A DNA stretch of 64,000 nucleotides from Dissophora ornata (Eukaryota > Mortierellomycota > Mortierellomycetes > Mortierellales > Mortierellaceae): the NCBI GenBank assembly GCA_025201705.1, contig MU616614.1, positions 1 through 64,000 of the forward strand. Reading direction: 5' to 3'. The translations under genes were made by a program, and so were the position numbers. The notes under the pieces are model-generated. The model did no database searches. It saw nothing but the letters and a program-made list of their open reading frames with translations, and had not been told where the DNA came from. The first letter of the stretch is position 1; the number at the start of each line of letters is the position of its first letter. This document shows positions 2,631-47,092 of this stretch, in pieces.

Positions 2631-3429
2631 GGCGTGGATTGGCTTTGTGGCTGAGTGTGCGAGTTTGGGAGGAGAAGAAGAAAGAGTGAATGTGAATGAA
2701 TGAGAGAAAAGGAGGGAATGAACAAAGGAAAGGTGTAGTTGACTTGGTGGGTCTTTATAGTGTGTGTGCGATGCACACAAATCGTTAATGTTCCAAACAT
2801 TTTTTTTTGCCGACAAAGCCCCAGCAAACCCAGCAACTATTGTGCGACACGACCTACAGCCCTACAGCTTGGGGCACGCCGTTACACTATAGCCACGTCC
2901 AAGAGAGGTGCCCCTTGTCATCTTCTTATCTCTTACCACCGCTCCCAAAATCAGAAAACCCAGCACGCGGAGTCCATCTTGGAAGTTACTGTGCATAGAG
3001 TACACACCGCTGTCGTCATTAAATAGTGCACCGCTGAGAGGACTATTGCGTCCACAGGTTGACTCCAAGGACATTTTTTGCATGACGAGGCGACTGCAGT
3101 AGGATCAGATACCAAGATACGTCGCGACTAATGCTGGATAGACAGCTTGCCTTGACCCCTCGTAGATCAAAGGTATAGTAGCTGATCACACGGTGAACTG
3201 TGTAGTCTTTTTTTAAACCTTCTGTGTCTCCAAGTTTCGTGCAGATTCAAGTGTGACTGTTCAGTGGCATTTGTTTACGTCTCACAACTACCGGACAAAG
3301 ATCAACAACGGACCACTCGCCTGGCATTCAACTGCATTCACTCGCCCTTCACTCCGGACGACCTATTCTTGACAAGGATTCCAGACACGCCTTTCTCATC
3401 CGGTCCATCAGAGGAGCTAGCGAATCAAA
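2631..3429. promoter_or_regulatory. Divergent intergenic region, PYK1 / uS11m
   Basis: About 800 bases separate the two divergently transcribed genes. Apart from the TATA box near the PYK side I see no convincing coding frame; the short frames here are not conserved-looking. It presumably holds both promoters. Confidence 0.6.
2753..2759 (-). promoter_or_regulatory. TATA box of the pyruvate kinase gene
   Basis: On the minus strand this reads TATAAAG, 123 nt upstream of the pyruvate kinase ATG. That spacing and a strong TATA are what a highly expressed glycolytic gene would be expected to have. The assignment is by position and sequence only. Confidence 0.6.
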
Positions 3430-9757: not shown

Positions 9758-10129
9758 AGGACGTTTTACATTGACTGGAGAAAAATATTGAAACACGCCT
9801 TTGTAATACCCAGATACGTGACGTGATTCACATGGAGGCAATAAACAACACAAAAGAAAACAATAAAACAGAAAAGGCGTCAGTAAAATGTGCAGCTACG
9901 AGGCGGTGGCGATTCTCAGCTGCAAGGTCCTGAGGCAATGGCATTATCTCAACGACTCAGAGCAACAAGGGCTTAGTCTGTGATTAGTCTCGGCAGATCA
10001 TGGCAGCAGATCGATCACACACAGCAGCAAAGGGTACTCATTAAAATTGGTAGATGCGTGAACGCGGCTCCTCTCGCTCCTATTAATTTGACTACAGGAA
10101 CAAAATAAGAGATACGGAATATCCTCACA
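9758..10129. other. Gene-less stretch beside the rRNA fragment
   Basis: No coding frame seen. The part around 9940-10010 loosely echoes the 25S 3' terminus (ATCTCAACGACTCAGAGCAACAAGGG) and may be a more decayed second copy of that end. Confidence 0.35.
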
Positions 10130-10700
10130 GCTGCGACAAAAGGTTTAATCTCAGCGAATCGAAACAACAAGGGCTACTCGAATGCTACAATACCCCGTTC
10201 AATTAAAGTCGCCTGCAATGAACTTATCTCCTCCAATATTTGACATTATCATTTTCAAGAGCCTCAAGAAGCCTTTCCGCTCCACAAAACCACTCCACGT
10301 AATATGATTCAGGGACCGAAGGTCTGTTCGTATTCAACTAAAAGTGGCCAAGGCGGTGATCGTCGCGTTCTAGCACGGATTCTGACTTAAAAGCGTTCAG
10401 CCATAATCCAACGGATGATAGCTTTGGGCCATTGCCTGCTCAGGCAGGCCCAAATACCAATTATCCGAATAAAGTGTTCCTGTCGTACTAACTTTAATTA
10501 CTATTGCAACAACATTTCATCAGAAGGGTAAAACTAACCTGTCTCACGGCGGTCTATACTCAGCTCACGTTCCCTATTCGTGGGTGAACAATCCAACGCT
10601 TACTGAATTCTGCTTCAGTATGATAGGGGGAGCCGACATCGAGGGGTAAAAAAGCAACGTCCCTATGAACGCTCGGCTGCCACAAGTCAGCTATTAAAAC
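10130..10700 (-). rRNA. 25S rRNA 3'-end fragment, diverged (pseudogene)
   Basis: Read on the minus strand, this matches the 3' part of eukaryotic large-subunit rRNA in order. It runs from the block resembling GCGTTCATAGCGACGTTGC, through GTTCACCCACGAATAGGG and AACGTGAGCTG..TAGACCG, GTGAGACAGGTTAGTTTTAC, the sarcin-ricin loop region, TTATTCGGATAATTGG and GGATTATGGCTGAACGC, to the terminal stretch near TTGTTTCGATTCGCTGAGAT. Homology stops abruptly near 10700 where 25S should continue upstream. Invariant positions are changed: the sarcin-ricin loop reads AGTACGACAGGAAC instead of AGTACGAGAGGAAC, and ACCCTACTGATG reads ACCCTTCTGATG. This is therefore a displaced, non-functional rDNA fragment, not an rDNA repeat. 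Comparison with the universal 25S sequence is from memory. Confidence 0.85.
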
Positions 10701-30201: not shown

Positions 30202-31770
30202 CTACACACTCGACTTTTCAAGCTCAAACGTTGGTCCATCATCGCCATGATCCTCGCGGATTATCCTCAAGACCTCACCATCACTCCTCGGCTCGCTCAC
30301 GATGAACCTCGAATAGCAAAGGTTGATGATGTACTCTCGAGCATCCACATGGAACTTGTATGAGAGCCATTTTCCGTCGTTCATGAACAACTTGACGGCA
30401 ACAACGGCATATGGGACGAGGAATACAATGGTAACCAACAACAATGGGATTGCCAACACCAGCTTGATGGAGATGACGGGTGTGATGACACCGGCTTGTT
30501 CGTATCCCTTGATCATGCCAATGGGTCGTGTTTGGGAGACAGCCATGGTGAAGCACGTAGTGATGTAGCTGAGAAAGTCTCCATTGTTAGCCGTTGACGA
30601 AGAGTCATGGCCATTGGCCATATCTTGTATAGCGGCTTGTAGATCTCTGCCATAGTCCAATAGGACGCCAATGTTGCCCCGTAGATTACGTAACGTGGCA
30701 TTTAATACCTCGTCCGCATCAACGCGTTTTATCTGCCTGATATCGGTGAACTTGGAGAACTCGAGTTGGTTGACAATTCCTTGGTTTCGGGATACGAGCG
30801 TGACATTTGTCGCAGCCAGCCAACTTTGGTGGTAGATTACCCCGTAGTAGGTTGCTTTCGTTACGTAGTTGCTCGTATCATTGCTCGTAAGATGACCATA
30901 TGCCTCAAGTATCGACTGCGCATTCCCAAAGTTGCTGGAGATGGATGAACCAAGTAACATATTAATCCCGACAGTGGTAACCGCAGTCAATGAGAACTTC
31001 TTTGTATCCCAATCGCTGAACGTACTGTTCAAGGAAGGAAAATCTTCCATGCTCCATCCACCAACTCCTACTACGCTGTAGTTGTAGACAGTTGTCATTC
31101 CTGGCGTCAAGTATACGAAGGTACCGTTCGCATACTCCAATCCCATTGAGAACGCGGTAACCATCACGCTGTCATATATCCCGGAATACTCGATGCTTCT
31201 TCCCAATCTTTCCAATGGAAGTTGGTATACCGCCAGTGGCACGTTTGCGGCCACAATGGATCTCGTGTTACTTCCTCCCCATGGTAAACCCGTCGTTAAT
31301 GTACTGTTCATGGGTTGGAGTACAAAGTTGTTCATCGACGAAAACTCGGAAGTCTCTGTCGGAGGAATGGTCGTGATGTTGGTGTACCCTTGCAGTAAAT
31401 CTTGCCCAATTCCGGTAGAGAAGCATTGGTTCTTGGTGCACAAGTCCATGGGGATATTTTTGGTACCAACGACAAGACCCGAGAACGCATGTCCAAGTAC
31501 ACCAATGGTCATGAGCAGCAAGACGGCAAACATTGGGAATCCACCAAGAAGGTTGAACAAATTAAGCACATCCAGATACGATCCACCACGAGATGTTGCC
31601 ATGACGTATAATTTGCCCCGGTTCTTGGGGAAATACTTGAAGAGCCAAAAGGTTATCCCTTCTCTGGAACTTTGGACGATGATGAAGAAAAATCCACCCA
31701 CGATGGCCAGTAGCATGCTCGTGACGATGCCCCTAAGGACATCATCCTTGATAACGATTTGGATATCCAT
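30202..31770 (-). CDS. Orphan glycosylated membrane protein, array copy 1
   Basis: Unrecognised family; single exon, 522 residues. Hydrophobic segments at about 14-34 (IVTSMLLAIVGGFFFIIVQ) and 75-100 (GGFPMFAVLLLMTIGVLGHAF) are followed by a ~330-residue region rich in N-glycosylation sequons (NIT, NST, NGT, NYS, NDT, NVT, NAT), so it is probably lumenal or extracellular. A third segment at about 445-470 (AIPLLLVTIVFLVPYAVVAV) precedes a ~50-residue cytosolic tail ending GPTFELEKSSV. No enzymatic motif is visible; a surface receptor or adhesin-like role is speculation. The gene is repeated at 33692 and 37292. It lies between LPMO-derived and P5CR-derived sequence, on the opposite strand to the LPMO gene. 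Confidence 0.8.
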   Translation of the reverse strand: MDIQIVIKDDVLRGIVTSMLLAIVGGFFFIIVQSSREGITFWLFKYFPKNRGKLYVMATSRGGSYLDVLNLFNLLGGFPMFAVLLLMTIGVLGHAFSGLVVGTKNIPMDLCTKNQCFSTGIGQDLLQGYTNITTIPPTETSEFSSMNNFVLQPMNSTLTTGLPWGGSNTRSIVAANVPLAVYQLPLERLGRSIEYSGIYDSVMVTAFSMGLEYANGTFVYLTPGMTTVYNYSVVGVGGWSMEDFPSLNSTFSDWDTKKFSLTAVTTVGINMLLGSSISSNFGNAQSILEAYGHLTSNDTSNYVTKATYYGVIYHQSWLAATNVTLVSRNQGIVNQLEFSKFTDIRQIKRVDADEVLNATLRNLRGNIGVLLDYGRDLQAAIQDMANGHDSSSTANNGDFLSYITTCFTMAVSQTRPIGMIKGYEQAGVITPVISIKLVLAIPLLLVTIVFLVPYAVVAVKLFMNDGKWLSYKFHVDAREYIINLCYSRFIVSEPRSDGEVLRIIREDHGDDGPTFELEKSSV

Positions 31771-32494
31771 TGTAGTTCAGACGTCGTAGGGTTGTCAACA
31801 AAAATGTCGGAAGGCGTAACAAAACTGTTGGGCTCTCGCTCTCAGAGTCGGAAGTGAGGAAAATGTCGGCCTTGCCGCGGGCGTCAGCAATAGCAGTGTC
31901 GATACGAGCTTGGGGTTGTTGACAGAAGCACAAGCAAAAAGCACTGTGTGGGGAAAAGTTGCCGAGGAAAACTTCGAACGGATGCGTCGACAGTGAAAGC
32001 GAAAACGTCGCAGTGCGGTAGTATTGCTAAACGAAGCAATGCAAAACACGACGTGTGAGTAAGAGCGGGAGCTTATGACAAACGATGCTTTGCTCCCATT
32101 GACGTGCGGGGCGCAGCCTATCAACGGTAGAGCCACTCACCCGCAACTGGTCTCGCTAAAACGGAAGTGAGTGTCGGGAACTCTTGGAAGCCGGCCGAGT
32201 GAATTTTCAATGGACACTCTCTGAACTGAGCAGCAGAGAGAAAGCAATATGACTGAAGAAAGAGTTCTATTAGCCTTAGTCGTCTCTGTCTGTACATGAG
32301 CTGTCCATTATATCTAAAGTTGTCATACCTGAATAGCTGAGAGAAAGCAACAGGATTGTAGAAAAGAGTGTCAGGGTCAGAGCAGGCACAGGTGAGCAAG
32401 AAGAGGAAGAGGTGAGGACAGAAAACAAAGAATACTAGGGACAAGGAAATGTATTTATTGCCGACTGGATTGTGCAAGGAGATTACTGTTGTCG
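31771..32494. promoter_or_regulatory. 5' flank of array membrane-protein copy 1
   Basis: Upstream region of the minus-strand gene. The same sequence recurs upstream of copies 2 (35210-35890) and 3 (38861-39540), so all three genes share promoter ancestry. A 63-codon minus-strand frame (31742-31933) is conserved in copy 2 (35181-35372) but not in copy 3. It could be part of a 5' exon or leader; unresolved. Confidence 0.5.
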
Positions 32495-33115
32495 GATTTT
32501 TTCAGCTCACGGGGATTTTTTTGTTGCGGCTCTTGCCCGGGATTAACAACCCAGAAGGTTCCCTCCTGCAATAACCCTGGTAAGGCAACATCCTGAGTAC
32601 TCCAACATCCTTGTCCTCCACGTGCTCTTTCCGAGGGGTCGCCAAAGAAAAAAAGAAAAAAAGAAAAAAAAGGACGAGGGCTCACAAATTTGTTGGCGAT
32701 TGGTCCCCCCAACGGACACATTCAACAAAACAAATATGTGCCGCGTTCTTGCGCTCATCACCTGCCTGTCCTGCGCTCTTGGTCGTGGACCGCTAACCTC
32801 GTCCCCCAGCACTGCCACAAGTAAGATTGCTCGTCGCCGTCGTTATCTTATTTCGATATGCATCGTGGTCGGCGCGAAAAGACGTGTGAAAACTAACGGA
32901 AACGAATCAAGGTATTTCTTTCCCCTGTAAAAAACAGTTGTGCTGATGTGACCATCGTCGGCGTCAAGAGCGGCAAGTTGCCATCGGAGATGAGGCAGGT
33001 CTATGACTTCAAGGGCGTGAAGCAGGGCAAGACCTTCCCAGGCGATGGCCATTCCCAGGACCGCAGCTCAGGCCTCATCAAGGGCGAGATCACTGCCAAC
33101 ACTCGCAAGTCATAA
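32495..33115 (+). pseudogene. LPMO 3'-end fragment, array unit 2
   Basis: Copy of the LPMO gene from within exon 3 (GCAATAACCCTGGTAA) to its stop codon. It retains exon 4-like sequence near 32775-32820, the following intron and a complete last exon (32938-33115, CADVTIVGVKSGK...NTRKS). Exons 1-3, including the signal peptide and both histidine-brace residues, are missing, so no LPMO can be made, although the last-exon frame has stayed open. Confidence 0.82.
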
Positions 33116-33479
33116 TTAAAAACAAATGAGAGCGAGAATGAGAGATAGAGCGGACAAGCAGTTGCGCAGAATGCACTGAAAGAGAATATAAAAAAAAGGG
33201 GGCGTCAGTCATTCTTTTTTTTTTTTCGTCATCTTGTTTAAACGCGTTGTTCTAGTTGGTTGATTGTTTCTCCTAGGAATGTGGGATAAGAGCCAAACAA
33301 ACAAACGCGTCTCCACTTGGTTAATGCAAACAGTTCAAGCAACTCAAACACGAGACCACATCTACAACCTCGCTGGTTTCACCATCGCAACGAAAATGTA
33401 TGAATGTTTACAAATGAACGAAGAAGTGTATGATATATTACAATTCGGAAGAGAAAAGCCGTGTTCTACAATGGAAGGG

Positions 33480-33565
33480 TGGGGTGGACCTAGAGATTTG
33501 TAGAAAGCTCCTTGCCGCTTAATTCCACAGCCGAGCTCTCACTCCTCATTTCTGCAGCCTTGGTT
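33480..33565 (-). pseudogene. P5CR 3'-tail fragment, array unit 2
   Basis: Second copy of the P5CR C-terminal tail sequence, same content as at 29955-30060 and 37060-37148. Confidence 0.65.
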
Positions 33566-33691
33566 GCGCAGGGGAGAGTGGATGTAGAGGCGTCATGCCA
33601 AGCGACACCCCTTACAACAGCGGCACATGGCATTGACATCGGTTCCATGGCTAGGACATCAAACTTTTATTTATAAAACATGGGTCGCAGT

Positions 33692-35209
33692 CTACGCACG
33701 CAACTTTTCCAGCTCAAACATTGGCCCATCATCGCCATGATCTTCGAGGATTATCCTCAGGACCTCACCATCACTCCTCGGCTCGCTCACGATGAAACTC
33801 GAATGGCAAAGGTTGATGATGTACTCTCGAGCATCCACATGGAACTTGTATGACAGCCATTTTCCGTCGTTCATGAACAACTTGACGGCAACAACGGCAT
33901 ATGGGACGAGGAATACAATGGTAACCAACAACAATGGGATTGCCCACGCCAGATTGATAGAGATGACGGGTGTGGGGACACCAGCTTGCTCGTATCCCTT
34001 GATCATGCCAATGGGTTGCGTTTGAGAGACAGCCATGGTGAAGCACGTAGCGATGTAGCTGAGAAAGTCTCCGTTGTTGGCCGTTGACGTCATGTCAATA
34101 CAATTCGCCCCACCTTGGGAAGAGGCTTGCAGCTCTCGACCATAGTCCAACAGGACGCCAACGTTGTCCCGTAGATTATGTAAAGTGGCATTTAATACAT
34201 CGTCCGCATCAACGCGTTTTATCAGCTTGAGGCTGGTGACACCGGAGATCTCAAGTTGGGTGACATTTCCTTGGTTTTGAGATATGAGCGTGACATTTGC
34301 CGCAGCTAGCCAACTTTGGTAGTTGATTGTTCCATAGTAGGTTGCTTTCGTTGCATTGCTGCTCGATTTACCGCTCGGGACACCAAAGTCGTTGAGCAAC
34401 ATATTAATCCCGTCAAGGGTAACTTCAGTCAAGGAGAGTTTCTTCGCATACCAACAACTGGGCGTACTGTCGCAGGAAGAATAATATTCCATGATCCATC
34501 CATCAACTCCTACGCTGTCGTTGCGGGTAGTTGTCGCTCTGCGAGTCAAGCATTCGCCGGTACCGTCCGCATATCCAATCCTATTGCGAACATGGTAACC
34601 GCCAAGCGGTAGAAAGGCCCGGAATACTCGATGCTTTCTTCCCAATCTTTCCAATGGAAGTTGGTATACCGCCAGTGGCACGTTTGCAGCCACAATGAAT
34701 CTCATGTTACTTCCTCCCCATGGCAACCCCGCCGTTATTGTACTGGTCATAGGTTGGAGTACAAAATTGTTCATCAACGAAAACCCGGAAGTCTTTGTTG
34801 AAGGAATGGTCGTGATGTTGGTGTACCCTTGCAGTGAATCTTGCCCAATTCCGGTAGAGAAGCATTGGTTATCGGTGCACAAGTCCGTGGGGATATTTTT
34901 GGTGGTAATTACAAGACCCGAGAACGCATGCCCAAGTACGCCGATGGTCATGAGCAGAAAGACGGCAAACATTGGGAATCCGCCAAGCAGGTTGAACAAA
35001 TTAAGCACATCCAGATACGATCCACCACGAGATGTTGCCATGACGTACAATTTGCCTCGATTCTTAGGGAAATGCTTGAAGAGCCAAAAGGTTATCCCTT
35101 CTCTGGCGCTTTGGACGATTATGAAGAAAAATCCACCCACGATGGCCAGTAGCATGCTCGTGACGATGCCCCTAAGGACATCATCCTTGATAGGGATATG
35201 GATATCCAT
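33692..35209 (-). CDS. Orphan glycosylated membrane protein, array copy 2 (divergent)
   Basis: 505 residues, single exon, same topology as copies 1 and 3. Two peculiarities are visible by direct comparison. After LERLGR, one extra base (an added T in GCTTTCTTCC, plus strand, near 34635) shifts the frame. A one-base loss about 60 nt further on restores it, so about 21 residues read in an alternative frame (KHRVFRAFLPLGGYHVRNRI) in place of SIEYSGIYDSVMVTAF. A stretch equal to about 17 residues after NMLL is deleted, removing the SISSNFGNAQ region. Several sequons are lost. It may be drifting toward a pseudogene or be a functional variant; the open frame and intact TM segments favour expression potential. 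Confidence 0.7.
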   Translation of the reverse strand: MDIHIPIKDDVLRGIVTSMLLAIVGGFFFIIVQSAREGITFWLFKHFPKNRGKLYVMATSRGGSYLDVLNLFNLLGGFPMFAVFLLMTIGVLGHAFSGLVITTKNIPTDLCTDNQCFSTGIGQDSLQGYTNITTIPSTKTSGFSLMNNFVLQPMTSTITAGLPWGGSNMRFIVAANVPLAVYQLPLERLGRKHRVFRAFLPLGGYHVRNRIGYADGTGECLTRRATTTRNDSVGVDGWIMEYYSSCDSTPSCWYAKKLSLTEVTLDGINMLLNDFGVPSGKSSSNATKATYYGTINYQSWLAAANVTLISQNQGNVTQLEISGVTSLKLIKRVDADDVLNATLHNLRDNVGVLLDYGRELQASSQGGANCIDMTSTANNGDFLSYIATCFTMAVSQTQPIGMIKGYEQAGVPTPVISINLAWAIPLLLVTIVFLVPYAVVAVKLFMNDGKWLSYKFHVDAREYIINLCHSSFIVSEPRSDGEVLRIILEDHGDDGPMFELEKLRA

Positions 35210-35964
35210 TGTAATTCAGAAGGCGTAGGGTTGTCAACAAAAATGTCGGAAGGCGTAACAAAACTGTTGGGCTCTCGCTCTCAGAGTCGGAAGTGAGGAA
35301 AATGTCGGCCTTGCCGCGGGCGTCAGCAATAGCAGTGTCGATACGAGCTTGGGGTTGTTGACAGAAGCACAAGCAAAAAGCACTGTGTGGGGAAAAGTTG
35401 TCGATGAAAACTTCGAACGGATGGATGCACAGTGATAGCGAAAACGTCGCGGTACGGTAATTTTGTTAAACGAAGCAATGCAAAAACACGACGTGTGAGT
35501 AAGAGCAGGAGCTTAGGACAAACGAGGCTTTGCTACCATTGACGTGCGGGGCGCAGCCTATCAACGGTAGAGCCACTCACCTGCAACTGGTCTCGCTAAA
35601 ACGGAAGCGAGTATCGGGAACTCTTGGAAGCCGATCGAGTGAATCTTCGGTGGATACACTCTGAACTGAGCAGCATAGAGAAAGCAACATGATTGAAGAA
35701 AGAGTTCTATTAGCCTTAGTTGTCTATATCTGTACATGATCTGTCCATTCCATCTAAAGTTATAATACCTGGACAGCAAAGAGAAAGTAACAGGATTGAG
35801 GAAAAGGGTGTCAGGGTCAGAGCAGGCACAGGTGAGCAAGAAGAGGAAGAGGAAGAGGTGAGGACTGGGAGCAAGGAATACTGGAGTCAAGGAAATTTAT
35901 TTATTGCAGACTGGACTGTACAAGAGGATATTACTGCTGACATGCACTCTGCCTGTTGTCGTTT

Positions 35965-36778
35965 GGGTTCAGCTTTTTTTTTTTTTGCGGCCCTTGCCGG
36001 GATTTTACCCAAAAGGTTCCTTCCTGCAATAATTCTGGAAAGGAAACACTCTTGTATGGCTCGGTTCCAGCGAACAGGACGCGAAATGCTAAAAAAAAAA
36101 AAAGCGATTGGTTCATTCGTCGTCACCACAGCCGCTGGGCACATTCAACAAATTAAATTCGTGCTTCGTTCATGTGCATGAACATACACAGCATTTCCCG
36201 ATATACTAATTGGTCAACTTCAAGGCGGTCCATCCTGCGGCTGGATTTCGAGCGCGCGTTTGACATCGAGTACGGATTGGAAAGTTTCGAAGATGCGCTT
36301 CCTTGTCTTCTTGCCTACGAGGTAGCCCGTGAACGTGGGGATCTTCAAATCCGGCCACAAAATTTAACCCAACTATATCGGGAAATGCTGTACTCATCAC
36401 CTGTCCTGCGCTCTTGATGATGGTTAGGCAGGCGCCTCTTCTCTTGGTCGTGGATCGCTAAATTCGTCTCCCAGTACTACCACAAGTAAGATTGCTCGTC
36501 ATCGTCGTCATCTTATTACGATATGCATTGTAGTCGGCGCGAAATGAAGTGTGAAAGCTAAAGGAAACGTATCAACTTATTTCTTTCCCCTGTAAAACAG
36601 CTGTGCTGATGTGACCATCGTCGGTGCCGAGAACGGCAATTTGCCATCGAAGATGAGGCAAGTCTATAGCTTCAAGGGTGTTAAGCAGGGTAAGACCTTC
36701 CCTGGCGATGGCCGCTCTCAGAGCCGCGGCCCTGGCCCCATCAAGGGCGAGATCACCGCCAACACTCGCACGCCATAA
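35965..36778 (+). pseudogene. LPMO 3'-end fragment, array unit 3
   Basis: Starts with the exon 3-like TTCCTTCCTGCAATAATTCTGG, contains exon 4-like sequence near 36435-36487 that is disrupted by substitutions and insertions, and ends with an open last exon at 36601-36778 (CADVTIVGAENGN...NTRTP). The exon 3-exon 4 interval contains additional unrelated sequence (36080-36400) not seen in unit 2. Catalytic exons are absent. Confidence 0.78.
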
Positions 36779-37059
36779 TTAAAAAAGACGAGTGCAAGAA
36801 TGAGAGATAGAGCGGACAAGCAGTTGCGCAGAATAAACTGAAGGAGAATAGAAAACCTTTTTTTTCTGTCACCTTGTTTAGACGCGTTGTTCTAGTTGGT
36901 TGATTATTGTTTCTCCTTTGTGGAATAAAAAGCCAAACAAACAAACGCGTCTCAAACACGCCGCAACCTCGCCGCTCTCACTATCGCAACGAAAAAACGT
37001 ATAAATGAACGTGAAGAAGTGTATTACAATTCGGAAGAGAAAAGCCGTGTTCTACAATG

Positions 37060-37148
37060 GAAGGGTGGGGTTGACCTACAGATTTGTAGAAAGCTCCTCG
37101 CCGCTTAATTCCAGAGCCGAGCTCTCACTCCTCATTTCTGCAGCCTTG
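37060..37148 (-). pseudogene. P5CR 3'-tail fragment, array unit 3
   Basis: Third copy of the P5CR C-terminal tail. On the minus strand it reads like an altered version of the P5CR end (AAEMRSESSALELSGEEL versus AADMRSKSLAVELGGKEL). Confidence 0.7.
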
Positions 37149-37291
37149 GTTGCGCAGGGGAGAGTTGATGAAGAGGCGCCACATCACCCGGCCGAAAGGA
37201 ATTGATACTCCTTACAACAGCGGCACATGGCATTGACATCGGTTCGACAGCTAGGCCACCAAACTTTTATTTTTAAAAAATGGGTCGTAGT

Positions 37292-38860
37292 CTACGCACG
37301 CAACTTTTCCAGCTCAAACATTGGTCCATCATCGCCATGATCTTCGAGGATTATCCTCAGGACCTCACCATCACTCCTCGGCTCGCTCACGATGAAACTC
37401 GAATGGCAAAGGTTGATGATGTACTCTCGAGCATCTACATGGGACTTGTATGACAGCCATTTTCCGTCGTTCATGTACAACTTGATGGCGACAATGGTAT
37501 ATGGGACGAGGAATACAATGGTAACCAACAACAATGGGATTGCCCACACCAGATTGATAGAGATGACGGGTGTGATGACATCAGCTTGTTCGTATCCCTT
37601 GATCATGCCAATGGGTCGCGTTTGGGAGACAGCCATGGTGAAGCACGTAGCGATGTAGCTGAGAAAGTCTCCGTTGTTGGCCGTTGACGTAATGACAATT
37701 GGATTCGCCCCACCTTGGGAAGAGGCTTGCAGATCTTGACCATAGTCCAACAGGACGCCAACGTTGTCCCGTAGGTTACGTAAAGTGGCATTGAATACCT
37801 TGTCCGCATCAACGCGTTTTATCAACGTGAGGTTGGCAATAGTGGAGATCTCCAGTTGGTTGACATTTCCTTGGTTTCGGGATACGAGCGTGACATTTGT
37901 CGCAGCCAGCCAACTTTGGTGGTAGATTACCCCGTAGTAGGTTGCTTTCGTTACGTAGCTGCTCGTATCATTGCTCGCGAGATGACCATATGCCTCAAGT
38001 AACGACTGCGCATTCCCAAAGTTGCTGGAGATGGATGAACCAAGTAACATATTAATCTCGACAGTGGTAACTGCAGTCAATGAGAACTCCTTCGTATCCC
38101 AACCACTGAACGTACTGTTCAAGGAAGGAAAATCTTCCATGCTCCATCCATCAACTCCTACTACGCTGTAGTTGTAGGCAGTTGTCACTCCGGGCGTCAA
38201 GTATACGAAGGTACCGTTCGCATACTCCAATCCCATTGAGGACGCGGTAACCATCACGCTGTCATATATCCCGGAATACTGGATGCTTCTTCCCAATCTT
38301 TCCAATGGAAGTTGGTATACCGCCAGTGGCACGTTTGCGGCCACAATGGATCTCGTGTTACTTCCTCCCCATGGTAAACCCGTCGTTAATGTACTGTTCA
38401 TGGGTTGGAGTACAAAGTTGTTCATCGACGAAAACTCGAAAGTCTTTGTTGGAGGAATGGTCGTGATGTTGGTGTATCCCTGCAGTAAATCTTGCCCAAT
38501 TCCGGTAGAGAAGCATTGGTTCTTGGTGCACAAGTCCATGGGGATATTTTTGGTACCAACGACAAGACCCGAGAACGCATGTCCAAGTACGCCGATGGTC
38601 ATGAGCAGAAAGACGGCAAACATTGGGAATCCACCAAGAAGGTTGAACAAATTAAGCACATCCAGATACGATCCACCACGAGATGTTGCCATGACGTATA
38701 ATTTGCCCCGGTTCTTGGGGAAATGCTTGAAGAGCCAAAAGGTTATCCCTTCTCTGGCACTTTGGACGATTATGAAGAAAAATCCACCCACGATGGCCAG
38801 TAGCATGCTCGTGACGATGCCCCTAAGGACATCATCCTTGATAGGGATATGGATATCCAT
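37292..38860 (-). CDS. Orphan glycosylated membrane protein, array copy 3 (mosaic)
   Basis: 522 residues, single exon, same topology as copy 1. The sequence is a patchwork. Residues 1 to about 110 match copy 2 (MDIHIPIKDDV, QSAREG, FKHFPK), about 112-350 match copy 1 (VVGTKNIPMDLCTKNQC, GNAQSLLEAYGHL), and the remainder again matches copy 2 (LRDNVGVLLDYG, ASSQGGAN, GPMFELEKLRA). That is the pattern left by gene conversion or unequal crossing over between tandem copies. It keeps the segment deleted in copy 2. Function unknown. Confidence 0.8.
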   Translation of the reverse strand: MDIHIPIKDDVLRGIVTSMLLAIVGGFFFIIVQSAREGITFWLFKHFPKNRGKLYVMATSRGGSYLDVLNLFNLLGGFPMFAVFLLMTIGVLGHAFSGLVVGTKNIPMDLCTKNQCFSTGIGQDLLQGYTNITTIPPTKTFEFSSMNNFVLQPMNSTLTTGLPWGGSNTRSIVAANVPLAVYQLPLERLGRSIQYSGIYDSVMVTASSMGLEYANGTFVYLTPGVTTAYNYSVVGVDGWSMEDFPSLNSTFSGWDTKEFSLTAVTTVEINMLLGSSISSNFGNAQSLLEAYGHLASNDTSSYVTKATYYGVIYHQSWLAATNVTLVSRNQGNVNQLEISTIANLTLIKRVDADKVFNATLRNLRDNVGVLLDYGQDLQASSQGGANPIVITSTANNGDFLSYIATCFTMAVSQTRPIGMIKGYEQADVITPVISINLVWAIPLLLVTIVFLVPYTIVAIKLYMNDGKWLSYKSHVDAREYIINLCHSSFIVSEPRSDGEVLRIILEDHGDDGPMFELEKLRA

Positions 38861-42994: not shown

Positions 42995-45900
42995 TCAAGT
43001 TTGGATCGCGTTCATCACGTTGGTCGGCGTAATGAGATCGAACACTACCGTCTCAGGAATCGCAGTAGCACCGGGCCGCGAGCTTAGGTATTTCGCTGTA
43101 TCCCTGGCCTGCCGCGCAGCAATAGCTTCACCGATCTTCACGACGTCTTGGTAGTACTTGAACACGACGTCCCGAAGCTCTGTTGTGACGAAACCGTAGC
43201 TGTCCTGCAAGAAGTCGATCGAAGGCTCCAGCACGCCGCGGCCCAGTACCGTTTCTGGATAAGGGCCTTGGCCAGTCAGCGACGCATTAATCTGAATGTC
43301 CTTAAATGTCATTTTGCCGATTTGATCATACGTATGAGTTTGCGAGGGAAGACAGGCCAGTACGTCGTCCGACGTCCAGTGTGAGGACAGCTTTCCTTGC
43401 GGCAATGGATACATCAGGAACGAGGCGTTGGGCACGAACGCCCCGTGATTATAAGAGCCATCGTTCACCACTGTATGCTGCACTGTGAACTGCCATATGA
43501 ACATTGTAAGCACTTCGTGTAGCTTCTCGACGGTCTTGACCTTATCCGGAAAGCGATGCGCGACCCTCTCGTCCTCACCCTCATCCGGAAGGCGATGCGC
43601 GACACTCTGGTCGTTGACATGGTTGAATGCCGGAGTCAGCTTGCTGAAGAAGCGCTGGAGCTGGATATCCTCCGCAACCGCCTGATCGCTTTGGCGATAT
43701 TGAATTGCGATGAAATTTTTGACGAAGTCTGAAATCGCATCATACCAAAGACGGGCGTCGTGAATATACGCATAGGAGAACGGAGTTTGCTCGACGCCGC
43801 GACGTTCGGCGTTGATTGGAATTGCCAGATCCAGGAAGCGAAATTTATCATTGTCGTTGTACATCTTGTCCTGCAGCTGATAGTTGCCGATTCGACCACA
43901 GGAGAAAATCAGGTCGTAGATGAAGCCGACGTTGTACACCCCTGGAGCACCATTGAGCACGCGGGTGTCGGGGAAGGATTGGGCATGAGGGCGGTAGTCT
44001 TGGTTGTAGATATTCTTTTGGAACTCCAAGGCTTTCACCAGGTGCGGCCGCAGCAACTTGAACACGGGGTGTTGCTGAAACTCCTCGCGAGATTGGGGCG
44101 ATGTGGTTGGATTGAAGACCTCTTGCGAGAAAAGAGCGATCGAAACCATCGCGCAGATCTGATGCGTATGCAGCTGATGGAAGCCTACATCGTGCAGCGT
44201 CTGGCCTGCGCAATTGGTCTGCATCTTGGCCAGCAGCCAGGCATTTTCGGCATTGATCATGTTCGGCGTGAACAACTCGCCGTCTTCCTCAAGCTGTATG
44301 CCGACTGGCATCAGCTCATTATTGTCGTTAACGGTGAAAAGGACGAGAGGCTTGGCAAGATAATGGCCCACCGGAGTTATTGTGCAGGCATTGAGATAGT
44401 GCCGGTAGTCGGCCACGTATTTCACCGTTTCTAGCCCTCCAGGAATATGCGCTGGGTCAATGCGTGCCTCCCTCAGCAGCCGGTTGAAATTCAAATTCGA
44501 CACATTCTGTAGTAAATTCGGCATAAAGCCCGCCAATTGTTGTCGGGCAAACTCATCGTCGTCCTTCAGCCAGAATTTCGGTGCCGGGATCGTCTGAAAG
44601 TTGTTGCCATAGTAAATGGCCTCCAACTTCCTCACCGAGCTATCTGTATCCGCGACCTGGACTGGCGGCAGCTTGTCACGCCGGGTGACATTTTCATTCC
44701 AGGTCGCATTCAGCATGGCCAACACCTGCTTATCCCGCGTGGAGGACTTCATGGATTGCGGCACCGTGTCGTACTTCTTCACGAACGCGGGAACTTCCCC
44801 TTCGAAGACGTAGTCCTCCTCGCTATAGATGCTTGGGCCTCCGCTCGGTGGCAGTGTTGCAGCTTTGCGGTCATCCGGGTTGTACTGATACTCATAGTGC
44901 ATTATGTTGGCTGTTGCCGGGTCGCCCATTATATCCGGTACCGTGAATGTCCCCCAGGTCTTCGTCATCTGTTTAATTTTCTCGTCCTCTCCAGCATGCC
45001 CCAGGATGTTCAGCACCGCGTTATAGGCCGAATCCAACGCCCCAACTATCCAGCCGTGATGGACTGAGCAGCACTCCCCGGCAAAGTTCAGGCGGCCGTC
45101 AAACTCGGGCGTCAACAGAGAGGGGTAGAGGTACTTGAACTGTCCTGGCTTGAACAAGGCGAACGCGCCTCCGCCTGCATGCTGGTCCCAGAACCAGGTC
45201 TTGGCCGTGCTGGCGTAGTCCCGGGGATTCGGTAAAACGTCGTCCATTTTAATGTGGGGATATAGATACTGAATGCTCTTGAGACATTCTTGGATGCGCT
45301 CCTCTTCGCCGAGCGCCCCCAACTTGCGCGCATCTTCACCCCAACAGTACACCTGAAGCACACCCCCCGTCGCGTTGTAGCCATACGACGGAAAGACGAT
45401 CTGCCTGATGGGGCGGTCCGTTGTTGCCACACCGCCCTTTATGCCCCTGTCGCTCCAGAACTGCCGCGTGAAGGTTATGAAGGCCTTGAATGAGGACATG
45501 TAGTTGCTACTGCGTAAAGCCTGTGCCTTCGCGAAGGAAACGTCTTCTTCCAGCAGGTTCGAATAAGCGCTGTTGGGCAATGTGGTGATGACATACGGGT
45601 AGGTTCGCACTTCGGTGCTACCATTGATGGCCAGTGTTACCTGCATGCCACTGAGGCGTTGCATCTGGTCCCGAACAGGACGCATGGCGGTCACTTTGTG
45701 TGAAGTGTACACGCGCTGTCTGCGCACAATTTCTTCATAGCTAGTCGCGATACCCAAACGCTCGACGGGGTGCAAATCCCATTCATCCTGCAGGAGGTTG
45801 GGCGGGTCATACTTGTAGCGACCATCCGATTGCGGCAACATGCCCACATCACGCTGAGCGTCTTGACCTTCGCTTATTGTGACAGAGCCGTTCATATCGA

Positions 45901-47092
45901 GTACCAGCCTACATGCATCCGGGAGGTTCTGCATCCCCTTGTTCACCGTCAGCATATGGATATTGGGGTCTTTCGGCTCATACGGGTTTTTGCTACCGCC
46001 CCAATCATAGACGGCGATTACCATCTCCACGAAAGATACGGAGTACATCCCAGTTCCCGCGTTGGTAGTCTCGAGGAAATTGACAACGGACCATGGCAGC
46101 GGATCGCTCTTTATCCCCATTTCCGGATCGTAGTACTTGCCCAGGTCTCCGAGGCGGAACTGAGTGGTCAGGTAATCCCACATTGAATATTGATCGAACT
46201 GCATTAGCAGCTCGAAGCCCTCAGCGAACAACCGGTTGATGGCCTCCAGGAACGGCGCGTTCACCATATCCAGCACCTTGTGGATCGGTAGGTAATCCTG
46301 GCCATCTTCCTGCTTTGCAGTCAACCAGACCATAGGCACGTTGCCGCCCTTCTTCACGTCGAAGTTGAGGCTCCCCAGCTTCGCCTCTTCGGCAGTCGTG
46401 GGCTCGCTCATGTTATTATAACGCAGCGGTTGCATTGGTGAATCGTAATAGAACTTTCGCCAGTACACTTTCTGATCGTCCATGCCTTTGCGGTGCAGCA
46501 CCGCATTCACCGCCAGAGCCATCTGCTGCACCGGCAGCATGTCCTCCGAATACTTTGGCAGGCGCATCCCACCTACTTCTCCATACAAGCAGGCATTGTT
46601 CTCGACTAGCGCATTGTAGTTGCCGGGCGAGTACCAAGTGTAAATTCGTCCGCCCACGCGTTCCGATGACTCCAACACCTCGAACTCGACATTGAGCGAC
46701 TGAAGGATCAATCCTGCAAATAGGCCCGCCATACCGGCACCCACGATCCCGACCTGGGCCTTTTCCGTGTGGGCAGGCAACCCGGCAGTGTATTTCCCCT
46801 CGATGGCTTCACGATCCCTGCGGTATATGTCACTCTCTATAGGAATTTCATCGTCCTTGAGCTGTTTGTCACTCTCCTTGCGAAATTCAAGCTCCTCCTG
46901 TTTTTTTTTATGAGTTGCCTCGTGATGAGAACGATCCAAGCGGGCAGTGTCACGCTGTTGCTTGAGCTTGGCACGGTGTTCGGCTCCAAAATTCTCCAAT
47001 ACCCAGCGTGCGTACGCTTTGCGGAAAGAACCCCGATTCTGATAGTCGCGCTGGAGGGACCCGGTCGTGGGATTGAGATCAAGATAGCTCAT
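42995..47092 (-). CDS. FAD amine/L-amino acid oxidase fused to a lipoxygenase domain
   Basis: 1365 residues in one exon. The N-terminal half is a flavin amine oxidase: charged leader (about 1-110), FAD loop GIVGAGMAGLFAG (Gly118, 120, 123), ERVGGRIYTW, and the closing flavin motif LNFAGECCSVHHGWIVGALD. It should oxidise an amine or amino acid, releasing H2O2. The C-terminal ~550 residues are a lipoxygenase domain: WLLAKMQTNCAGQTLHD, then His972 and His977 (H-x4-H), HPVFKLLRPH, His1206 and Asn1210 (QHTVVNDG) and VPNASFLMYPLP. Those residues match four of the five iron ligands. The fifth is the C-terminal carboxylate, and the chain ends NAIQT rather than the usual Ile. I know of no characterised enzyme of this architecture. 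No signal peptide is seen. Both halves read without a break, so this is a true fusion frame. A ~15-residue motif (VAHR[LF]PD) is tandemly repeated near 1160-1185. Confidence 0.85.
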   Translation of the reverse strand: MSYLDLNPTTGSLQRDYQNRGSFRKAYARWVLENFGAEHRAKLKQQRDTARLDRSHHEATHKKKQEELEFRKESDKQLKDDEIPIESDIYRRDREAIEGKYTAGLPAHTEKAQVGIVGAGMAGLFAGLILQSLNVEFEVLESSERVGGRIYTWYSPGNYNALVENNACLYGEVGGMRLPKYSEDMLPVQQMALAVNAVLHRKGMDDQKVYWRKFYYDSPMQPLRYNNMSEPTTAEEAKLGSLNFDVKKGGNVPMVWLTAKQEDGQDYLPIHKVLDMVNAPFLEAINRLFAEGFELLMQFDQYSMWDYLTTQFRLGDLGKYYDPEMGIKSDPLPWSVVNFLETTNAGTGMYSVSFVEMVIAVYDWGGSKNPYEPKDPNIHMLTVNKGMQNLPDACRLVLDMNGSVTISEGQDAQRDVGMLPQSDGRYKYDPPNLLQDEWDLHPVERLGIATSYEEIVRRQRVYTSHKVTAMRPVRDQMQRLSGMQVTLAINGSTEVRTYPYVITTLPNSAYSNLLEEDVSFAKAQALRSSNYMSSFKAFITFTRQFWSDRGIKGGVATTDRPIRQIVFPSYGYNATGGVLQVYCWGEDARKLGALGEEERIQECLKSIQYLYPHIKMDDVLPNPRDYASTAKTWFWDQHAGGGAFALFKPGQFKYLYPSLLTPEFDGRLNFAGECCSVHHGWIVGALDSAYNAVLNILGHAGEDEKIKQMTKTWGTFTVPDIMGDPATANIMHYEYQYNPDDRKAATLPPSGGPSIYSEEDYVFEGEVPAFVKKYDTVPQSMKSSTRDKQVLAMLNATWNENVTRRDKLPPVQVADTDSSVRKLEAIYYGNNFQTIPAPKFWLKDDDEFARQQLAGFMPNLLQNVSNLNFNRLLREARIDPAHIPGGLETVKYVADYRHYLNACTITPVGHYLAKPLVLFTVNDNNELMPVGIQLEEDGELFTPNMINAENAWLLAKMQTNCAGQTLHDVGFHQLHTHQICAMVSIALFSQEVFNPTTSPQSREEFQQHPVFKLLRPHLVKALEFQKNIYNQDYRPHAQSFPDTRVLNGAPGVYNVGFIYDLIFSCGRIGNYQLQDKMYNDNDKFRFLDLAIPINAERRGVEQTPFSYAYIHDARLWYDAISDFVKNFIAIQYRQSDQAVAEDIQLQRFFSKLTPAFNHVNDQSVAHRLPDEGEDERVAHRFPDKVKTVEKLHEVLTMFIWQFTVQHTVVNDGSYNHGAFVPNASFLMYPLPQGKLSSHWTSDDVLACLPSQTHTYDQIGKMTFKDIQINASLTGQGPYPETVLGRGVLEPSIDFLQDSYGFVTTELRDVVFKYYQDVVKIGEAIAARQARDTAKYLSSRPGATAIPETVVFDLITPTNVMNAIQT

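What the first reader, a model, noticed from the sequence alone, without database searches (positions are those of the whole stretch)
42995..47092. Amine oxidase-lipoxygenase fusion enzyme in a single exon
One uninterrupted 1365-codon frame carries a complete FAD amine/L-amino acid oxidase (dinucleotide loop at 118-123, ERVGGR, closing AGECCSVHHGWIVGALD) followed by a lipoxygenase domain with His972, His977, His1206 and Asn1210 placed as iron ligands. Established knowledge: LOX fusions described elsewhere join a catalase-like allene oxide synthase; a flavin oxidase partner is not one I know as characterised. Inference: the oxidase half makes H2O2, or a hydroperoxide tone, beside an iron centre that needs oxidation to Fe(III), so the two halves may be coupled.
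Basis: partly seen in the sequence, partly recalled or inferred. Interest (0 to 1): 0.82.

Follow-up and report, generated by a model that had tools for sequence, protein, structure and literature searches.

The report
Bacterial-type oxidase-lipoxygenase fusion in a fungus
A fungus carries, as one uninterrupted gene that looks acquired from Burkholderia-like bacteria, a large enzyme joining an amino-acid oxidase to a fatty-acid oxygenase; the same fusion occurs in many bacteria, and I found no description of it.

Summary
Window 42995-47092 (-) is one 1365-codon frame with an L-amino acid oxidase (LAAO)-type FAD half (residues 1-720) and a lipoxygenase (LOX) half (721-1365). The four predicted iron ligands and the oxidase motifs are intact; models of the halves match solved LOXs and LAAOs. 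The architecture is not unique to this gene: the homology search returned 58 other near-full-length fusions (52-67% identical), of which 10 are named bacteria, 2 are Mortierellaceae fungi and 46 are unnamed. The three fungal sequences form one clade nested inside Burkholderia/Paraburkholderia/Chitinimonas. The surroundings are fungal, so interkingdom transfer of the ready-made fusion is the best reading. The C-terminus is Thr, not the usual Ile, in all 58 rows with a complete end. The oxidase half also occurs alone in many Bacteroidota; LOX-half records without a whole oxidase all begin inside the fusion and mostly look like fragments, which hints that this LOX depends on the oxidase. A tyrosinase gene lies within 10 kb in 6 of 12 bacterial fusion loci. 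Ten paper searches showed no characterised enzyme of this architecture.

The parts
42995..47092 (-). Single ORF, 1365 aa, LAAO-LOX fusion
   Evidence: Pfam; only strong match in the 31.4-Mb assembly (one other, weak, E 6e-4, residues 585-697)
44933..47092 (-). Residues 1-720: FAD L-amino acid oxidase half
   Evidence: Pfam PF01593/PF13450; phmmer to LAAO4 9enh 6.4e-45; model pTM 0.83, Foldseek to L-lysine oxidase and LAAO4
42998..44932 (-). Residues 721-1365: lipoxygenase half (no PLAT/C2 domain in the Pfam scan)
46724..46741 (-). Residues 118-123, FAD dinucleotide-binding loop (GAGMAG)
   Evidence: G118, G120, G123 in 58 of 59 each
46646..46663 (-). Residues 144-149 ERVGGR
   Evidence: R145, G147, G148, R149 in 59 of 59
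46562..46564 (-). R177 of GEVGGMR: presumed substrate-carboxylate arginine (role recalled from LAAO structures)
   Evidence: 59 of 59 fusions, 116 of 116 oxidase-only proteins examined; aligns with the Arg of GAMRYP in LAAO4 and L-lysine oxidase
45485..45487 (-). K536: presumed active-site lysine near the flavin (role recalled)
   Evidence: invariant in the 29 rows of A1 and in 116 of 116 oxidase-only proteins examined; aligned to Lys in LAAO4 and L-lysine oxidase
45050..45082 (-). Residues 671-681 AGECCSVHHGW, closing FAD/substrate motif
   Evidence: A671, G672, E673, S676, H678, G680, W681 in 59 of 59
44177..44179 (-). H972, predicted iron ligand
   Evidence: 59 of 59
44162..44164 (-). H977, predicted iron ligand
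   Evidence: 58 of 59, Asn in Modicella P0009
43475..43477 (-). H1206, predicted iron ligand
   Evidence: 59 of 59
43463..43465 (-). N1210, predicted iron ligand
   Evidence: 58 of 59, Ser in Modicella P0009
42998..43000 (-). C-terminal Thr1365, in the place of the usual C-terminal Ile whose carboxylate binds iron (ligand role recalled)
   Evidence: Thr in 58 of 59 rows, the other being a partial record; LOX-only relative P0079 ends AIQI against AIQT here; VIA-align pairs the last model residues with the last residues of solved LOXs
46793..46915 (-). Residues 60-100: 41-residue in-frame insertion absent from over 90% of the 56 non-fungal fusions; modelled as the end of a helix (37-79), then low confidence
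   Evidence: model; I saw no convincing GT-AG intron by eye
43571..43606 (-). Residues 1163-1174: 12-residue insertion that looks like a local duplication (VAHRLPDEG / VAHRFPDKV)

Best explanation
The gene encodes one polypeptide with two catalytic centres: an FAD L-amino acid oxidase (L-amino acid + O2 -> 2-oxo acid + NH3 + H2O2) and an iron lipoxygenase (polyunsaturated fatty acid + O2 -> fatty-acid hydroperoxide). A fungus acquired the ready-made fusion from a Burkholderia-like bacterium and keeps it as one intact, single-copy gene. Shown by computation: frame, domains, folds of the halves, intact catalytic residues, bacterial family, nesting in the Burkholderiales clade, fungal surroundings. 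Inferred: that both halves are active, and that the link is one-way, the oxidase helping the LOX by providing peroxide close by (to form or keep the active Fe(III) state) or by being needed for its folding or positioning. Likely use in the fungus (inferred): oxygenation of its own polyunsaturated fatty acids, with H2O2, as a signalling or defensive burst. Confidence in identity plus horizontal transfer is about 0.9; in two active centres about 0.7; in the one-way coupling about 0.3.
For: Domains and folds. Residue conservation. Family: 58 near-full-length relatives besides the window (only the 7996 candidates sharing most words were scored); 12 full-length fusion loci in bacterial genome records. 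Transfer: window + Entomortierella + Modicella (both Mortierellaceae) in one clade (bootstrap/SH-aLRT 99/97), inside a six-row clade with Burkholderia and Paraburkholderia (100/99), then Chitinimonas (98/94), then two unnamed rows (nine rows, 100/100). The constraint that the six non-fungal rows of that clade stay together without the fungi is rejected (p-AU 0.0156). A quick tree of 65 rows agrees (3 rows 99, 9 rows 100). Both halves taken apart fall in the same nine-row clade (100/100 each). Fungal setting: pyruvate kinase, P5C reductase, cyclophilin and AlkB-like ORFs in the window, eukaryotic LSU rRNA segments, strong chitin synthase hits and no bacterial DnaA in the assembly. Constraint: of 342 columns invariant in 56 non-fungal rows the window changes 15, none an iron ligand. 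One-way link: oxidase-only proteins are common and end at the junction (116 examined; alignment ends at window residue 721 in 91. 27 of 28 loci stop 3-22 codons after it, L042 being cut off by its contig end), while 13 LOX-half records without a whole oxidase half all start inside the fusion.
Against: No activity, transcript or localisation data. The window lineage has a long branch (0.70; 0.96 in the oxidase half), and its 15 changes at otherwise invariant columns exceed every leave-one-out value among the 56 non-fungal rows (largest 11, middle row 1); 11 of the 15 are in the oxidase half. The oxidase could have changed or lost function. In Modicella two iron ligands are changed, so the LOX half is dispensable in at least one fungal record. 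Oxidase-only relatives show the oxidase does not need the LOX. P0062 and P0064 begin with Met inside the oxidase half and could be real short forms. The LOX-half tree alone does not group the window with the other two fungi. GC3 (0.67) is near local genes but also not far from Microcystis (0.57) and Paraburkholderia (0.77), so it does not discriminate by itself. Substrates are not predicted.
Confidence: 0.65

Rival explanations
1. The two halves are active but not chemically coupled; they are yoked so that H2O2, ammonia, 2-oxo acids and lipid hydroperoxides are delivered together as an oxidative weapon, or for cross-linking or pigment formation, in bacteria often beside a tyrosinase.
For: Tyrosinase within 10 kb of the fusion in 6 of 12 full-length fusion loci (L002, L005, L006, L012, L013, L014), with the copper chaperone PpoB2 in 4 of them (L002, L005, L013, L014) and a multicopper oxidase in L006 and L012. 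7 of these 12 genomes hold a tyrosinase at all, one gene in six of them and two in G012 (G005 and G010 give two pieces of one gene each). A stretch of about 20 kb in genomes of 4-9 Mb would hold such a gene by chance in under 1% of cases (arithmetic, no shuffle run). A tyrosinase also lies near one oxidase-only gene (L041, Roseivirga).
Against: 6 of 12 fusion loci show none within the flanks held, and in L010's genome the tyrosinase (C14) is on another contig than the fusion (C9). The Burkholderia-type neighbours count as one lineage. Only 1 of 28 oxidase-only loci has one. The window's own assembly gave no tyrosinase hit, though that search rang in no control genome. Co-location does not show joint action.
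Confidence: 0.3
2. The LOX half acts in sequence with the oxidase on one substrate, for example an amino-acid-headed lipid, rather than on free fatty acid.
For: The fusion is kept at nearly one length (mostly 1310-1350 aa) over many lineages; sequential use is known for the coral allene oxide synthase-LOX (recalled).
Against: LAAOs need a free alpha-amine and carboxylate (recalled); nothing in the neighbourhoods examined points to such a lipid.
Confidence: 0.08
3. In fungi one half is decaying, and the transferred gene works mainly as the other enzyme.
For: Modicella P0009 lacks two of four protein iron ligands (N977, S1210). The window's oxidase half evolves about twice as fast as its LOX half (end branches 0.96 and 0.50).
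Against: In the window and in Entomortierella the four iron ligands are intact, and the oxidase motif residues checked are intact in the window; the frame is open over 4.1 kb after long divergence.
Confidence: 0.15
4. Bacterial contamination or misassembly put a bacterial gene on a fungal contig.
For: The gene is bacterial in ancestry and has no intron in its frame.
Against: It is at most 70% identical to any of the 64 rows compared, lies about 43 kb into its contig among eukaryotic genes, groups with two other fungal records, and no DnaA is in the assembly (13 of 14 control genomes rang).
Confidence: 0.02

Closest known systems
Coral (Plexaura homomalla) allene oxide synthase-lipoxygenase fusion
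   Same: A single polypeptide with a peroxide-type N-terminal enzyme and a C-terminal LOX; its LOX is the best PDB match by sequence (3fg3, 3fg1, 3dy5) and among the best by fold
   Different: The coral N-terminal half is a catalase-like haem domain (recalled), here an FAD amine-oxidase fold; LOX identity about 20%; C-terminal Thr here
Fungal and venom L-amino acid oxidases (Hebeloma LAAO4, L-lysine oxidase, Bothrops LAAO)
   Same: FAD fold and active-site motifs
   Different: Stand-alone enzymes; about 20-25% identity in the structure alignment; substrate unknown here
Bacterial lipoxygenases (Pseudomonas aeruginosa PA-LOX, Cyanothece CspLOX2, Enhygromyxa LOX)
   Different: Not fused to an amine oxidase (recalled); 18-22% identity; LOX-only rows P0079-P0082 end in Ile
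Oxidase-only proteins of about 700 aa, mostly Bacteroidota where named ('flavin monoamine oxidase family')
   Same: 47-57% identical to the window's oxidase half in the listed rows P0084-P0199, same end point
   Different: No LOX half; 7 of 8 such genomes tested gave no LOX hit

Membership tests
Lipoxygenase (PF00305) | Match above the family cut-off | tested here: met
   64.8 bits against 23.6
Lipoxygenase (PF00305) | H-x4-H, H-x3-N iron ligands | tested here: met
   H972, H977, H1206, N1210
Lipoxygenase (PF00305) | Helical LOX fold | tested here: met
Lipoxygenase (PF00305) | C-terminal Ile (or Val) whose carboxylate is the fifth ligand (recalled) | tested here: not met
   C-terminal residue is Thr in all 58 complete rows. 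The terminal position, and so a carboxylate, is kept, so iron binding is expected but was not measured. This lowers the claim of a canonical LOX, not that it works like one
Lipoxygenase (PF00305) | Dioxygenates a PUFA | not testable with these tools
   needs assay
L-amino acid oxidase (FAD amine oxidoreductase, PF01593) | FAD dinucleotide motif and closing FAD motif | tested here: met
L-amino acid oxidase (FAD amine oxidoreductase, PF01593) | Substrate-carboxylate Arg and flavin-side Lys (roles recalled) | tested here: met
   R177, K536 aligned to LAAO4 and L-lysine oxidase and invariant
L-amino acid oxidase (FAD amine oxidoreductase, PF01593) | Oxidises L-amino acids, making H2O2 | not testable with these tools
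   needs assay; dehydrogenase or monooxygenase use of the same fold cannot be excluded
Catalase-like allene oxide synthase-LOX | N-terminal haem catalase-like domain (recalled) | tested here: not met
   no catalase family in the Pfam scan at E<=1; Amino_oxidase instead

The most novel reading that the evidence does not exclude
A self-priming lipoxygenase: the oxidase half feeds peroxide directly to the iron site, so that L-amino acid availability switches fatty-acid oxygenation on (or makes the LOX half work as an H2O2-driven peroxygenase); the Ile-to-Thr C-terminus would be part of that altered iron site. The module arose in bacteria and was passed to fungi.
Probability: 0.2. Interest if true: 0.85.

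Novelty: new variant of a known kind. Interest (0 to 1): 0.62.

Why it matters
LOX enzymes need oxidation to Fe(III) before they work (recalled). A natural family in which a LOX is tied to an H2O2-making type of oxidase, and was not seen whole without at least part of it, would let that activation problem be tested in one protein. The family is broad (58 further clusters of near-full-length members; one Burkholderia cluster alone stands for 141 sequences), and the names given by the sources mention only the oxidase, so the LOX half is hidden. The fungal copies show interkingdom transfer of a complete two-enzyme module.

Tried and rejected
Rooting the oxidase-half tree with distant outgroups: the two outgroups sit on branches of length 10, so the root is meaningless. 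I used only the unrooted finding that oxidase-only proteins fall in three places among the fusions (P0176/P0198; P0084/P0118/P0146; the large group beside fusion P0045). With middling support (81-100) that favours repeated loss of the LOX half but does not prove it. P0066 and P0067, labelled 'alone' there, in fact run into the LOX half and are cut short. In one search the six oxidase-only outgroup rows were not one side of any branch.

Conserved operon partner across the bacterial loci: none found. Apart from the gene itself no ORF family was shared by more than 6 of 42 loci. That greedy ORF call also gave wrong long ORFs in GC-rich loci, so one search used a codon-usage score, for the 12 full-length fusion loci only.

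LOX-only members of this clade: none whole. P0061-P0065 and P0071-P0078 (13) all start inside the fusion, at window residues 325-982. I did not look at their contigs, so 'fragment' is inferred from start points and mostly short contigs; P0062 (contig of 199,721 bases) and P0064 begin with Met and may be true short forms with part of the oxidase half.

Hidden intron in the 41-residue insertion: none seen by eye. Anti-phage library: one match only, to a desaturase-labelled model covering part of the oxidase half (E 1.8e-24), taken as the shared FAD fold. No tRNA. A full-length model was not possible (limit 1200 aa). Plasmid collection: one fusion, on a Burkholderia stagnalis replicon, among 231 records with any match.

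Host identification beyond 'fungus, kin to Mortierellaceae by this gene': the own-genome rRNA searches did not complete. Chitin synthase rang in 4 of 14 control genomes too, so it is only supporting.

Literature: all 10 searches used; lists were cut for (25 of 51,297 papers shown, an over-broad query; 12 of 25; 12 of 59). I saw search listings for all, matched passages of PMC11291939 (0 hits for lipoxygenase and amine oxidase) and PMC11011848 (0 for fusion and amine oxidase), and no match for my six terms in PMC5712309. No paper was read whole. Subscription papers are mostly missing and bioRxiv is not held.

P0009 is a partial record without its C-terminus; its aligned 'S' at 1365 is an artefact, hence 58 complete rows.


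Full report
OBSERVATION. The frame 42995-47092 on the minus strand is open for 1365 codons from an ATG. Pfam finds Amino_oxidase (3.6e-40), NAD_binding_8 and Lipoxygenase (7.7e-18), all above cut-off. By sequence the closest solved structures are L-amino acid oxidases for the first half (Hebeloma LAAO4, 6.4e-45) and the coral allene oxide synthase-lipoxygenase for the second (1.3e-20).

A BACTERIAL FAMILY. The full-length search returned 70 proteins, from a capped candidate set. 59 of them, window included, are 1280 aa or longer; the other 58 match 91-100% of the window protein at 52-67% identity. A scan of 84,980 species genomes with two short exact motifs gave 42 loci: 12 full-length fusions, one incomplete (L011), one truncated near a contig end (L043), and 28 with the oxidase half alone and no LOX match in the stretch held. 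Of these 28, 27 stop 3-22 codons after the junction and L042 is cut off by its contig; 26 of the 28 are Bacteroidota going by the genus or group in their titles, the others Colwellia and a gammaproteobacterial MAG. Some of these 27 loci hold little sequence after the gene (255 to 10,054 bases). Exact motifs miss relatives, so absence elsewhere is not shown. The source names mention only the oxidase.

CONSERVATION. H972 and H1206 are kept in 59 of 59 rows, H977 and N1210 in 58 of 59; Modicella is the exception at both. The chain ends in Thr in all 58 complete rows, two places after an Ile (57 rows; Val in Entomortierella); the residue between is Gln in 48, Leu in 9, Glu in 1. The nearest LOX-only relative, P0079 (28% identical), ends AIQI where the window ends AIQT. 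So Thr has replaced the terminal Ile while the terminal position is fixed. That the carboxylate is the fifth iron ligand is general LOX knowledge, recalled. In the oxidase half R177, H678, G680 and W681 are kept in 59 of 59 fusions, and R177, K536, H678, H679, G680 and W681 in 116 of 116 oxidase-only proteins (116 of 210 hits, the list being capped at 120).

TRANSFER. In a tree of 20 fusions (LG+C20) the window, Entomortierella and Modicella form a clade (99/97) inside a six-row clade with Burkholderia and Paraburkholderia (100/99), then Chitinimonas (98/94) and two unnamed rows (100/100). Holding the six non-fungal rows together without the fungi is rejected (p-AU 0.0156). That test was chosen after seeing the quick tree, so it is weaker than the number. 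Separate trees put both halves in the same nine-row clade (100/100 each). The oxidase half groups the three fungal sequences (99/98), while the LOX half leaves the window unresolved beside Burkholderia and the other fungi. One transfer of the whole fusion is the simplest reading; two transfers are not excluded. The window branch is long (0.70). Relative to 56 non-fungal rows the window changes 15 of 342 invariant columns, against 5 in Entomortierella, 15 in Modicella, and at most 11 when each non-fungal row is left out in turn.

SETTING. The window's other recognisable genes include pyruvate kinase, P5C reductase, a cyclophilin and an AlkB-like protein, with eukaryotic LSU rRNA segments. The 31.4-Mb assembly has 23 chitin synthase matches, best 5.1e-250 (4 of 14 control genomes rang too), no bacterial DnaA (13 of 14 controls rang) and one copy of the fusion, besides a weak partial oxidase match. 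GC3 of the ORF is 0.67, near nine local ORFs (0.49-0.64) and below Burkholderia cepacia (0.90), but Paraburkholderia is 0.77 and Microcystis 0.57, so GC3 is weak evidence. Contamination is unlikely.

WHICH HALF NEEDS WHICH. Oxidase-only relatives are abundant and end at the junction; 7 of 8 such genomes tested gave no LOX hit. In contrast the 13 shorter proteins carrying this clade's LOX half all begin inside the fusion, and the next LOX-only relatives are at 24-28% identity. This one-way pattern is what is expected if the LOX half leans on the oxidase half. It would also arise if the LOX was simply lost several times from an ancestral fusion, which the interleaved tree suggests.

NEIGHBOURS. 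A tyrosinase gene lies within 10 kb of the fusion in 6 of 12 full-length loci: Burkholderia/Paraburkholderia L002, L005, L013, L014, with the copper chaperone PpoB2, and Undibacterium L006, L012, with a multicopper oxidase. Seven of the 12 genomes have a tyrosinase anywhere; in the seventh (L010) it is on another contig than the fusion. Flanks were short for some loci (L004, L013). A second B. stagnalis record, L044, shows the same. One oxidase-only locus of 28 (L041) also has a tyrosinase. The fungal assembly gave no tyrosinase match; the search is intron-blind and rang in no control genome, though the same family rang in 7 of the 12 bacterial genomes.

MECHANISM. Most likely both centres work, giving 2-oxo acid, ammonia and H2O2 at one and fatty-acid hydroperoxide at the other. 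[quoted passage not shown] Mortierella-like fungi make such lipids themselves (recalled).

LITERATURE. Ten searches listed no paper whose title or shown abstract concerns an amine-oxidase or LAAO-LOX fusion. [quoted passage not shown] Subscription journals are mostly missing, so absence from print is not shown.

VERDICT. A real, intact, bacterial-type LAAO-LOX fusion gained by a fungus. The kinds of parts are known; the combination, its breadth, the terminal Thr and the one-way pattern seem undescribed in what I could search.

Noticed in passing
window 30202-38860 (-): Three tandem ORFs of 522, 505 and 522 aa without a Pfam match are paralogues: the third is 90% and the second 75% identical to the first.
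   Followed up: partly
window 10128-10694 (-): Two adjacent segments matching the 3' part of eukaryotic LSU rRNA (model 2826-3399 of 3401), apparently an isolated rRNA fragment.
   Followed up: no
P0009 (Modicella reniformis): Two of four protein iron ligands are changed (N977, S1210) though the protein is 82.5% identical to Entomortierella: possible loss of LOX function in one fungus, or sequence error.
   Followed up: partly
L024, L026, L031, L032, L034: A patatin-like phospholipase gene lies within a few hundred bases of the oxidase-only gene in 5 of 28 oxidase-only loci (Pfam for L031 only).
   Followed up: partly
L044, 1-23975: The Burkholderia stagnalis fusion sits among tyrosinase, octopine/nopaline dehydrogenase, phytanoyl-CoA dioxygenase, methyltransferase, LLM flavoenzyme, PLP decarboxylase and ATP-grasp genes, resembling a biosynthetic cluster.
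   Followed up: no
window 42998-47092: In the window lineage the oxidase half evolves about twice as fast as the LOX half (0.96 and 0.50), whereas in Entomortierella they are about equal (0.084 and 0.095).
   Followed up: no
P0051-P0059: A subgroup of nine unnamed fusions ends in ILT instead of IQT; the oxidase halves of three of them sit beside oxidase-only P0176/P0198.
   Followed up: no
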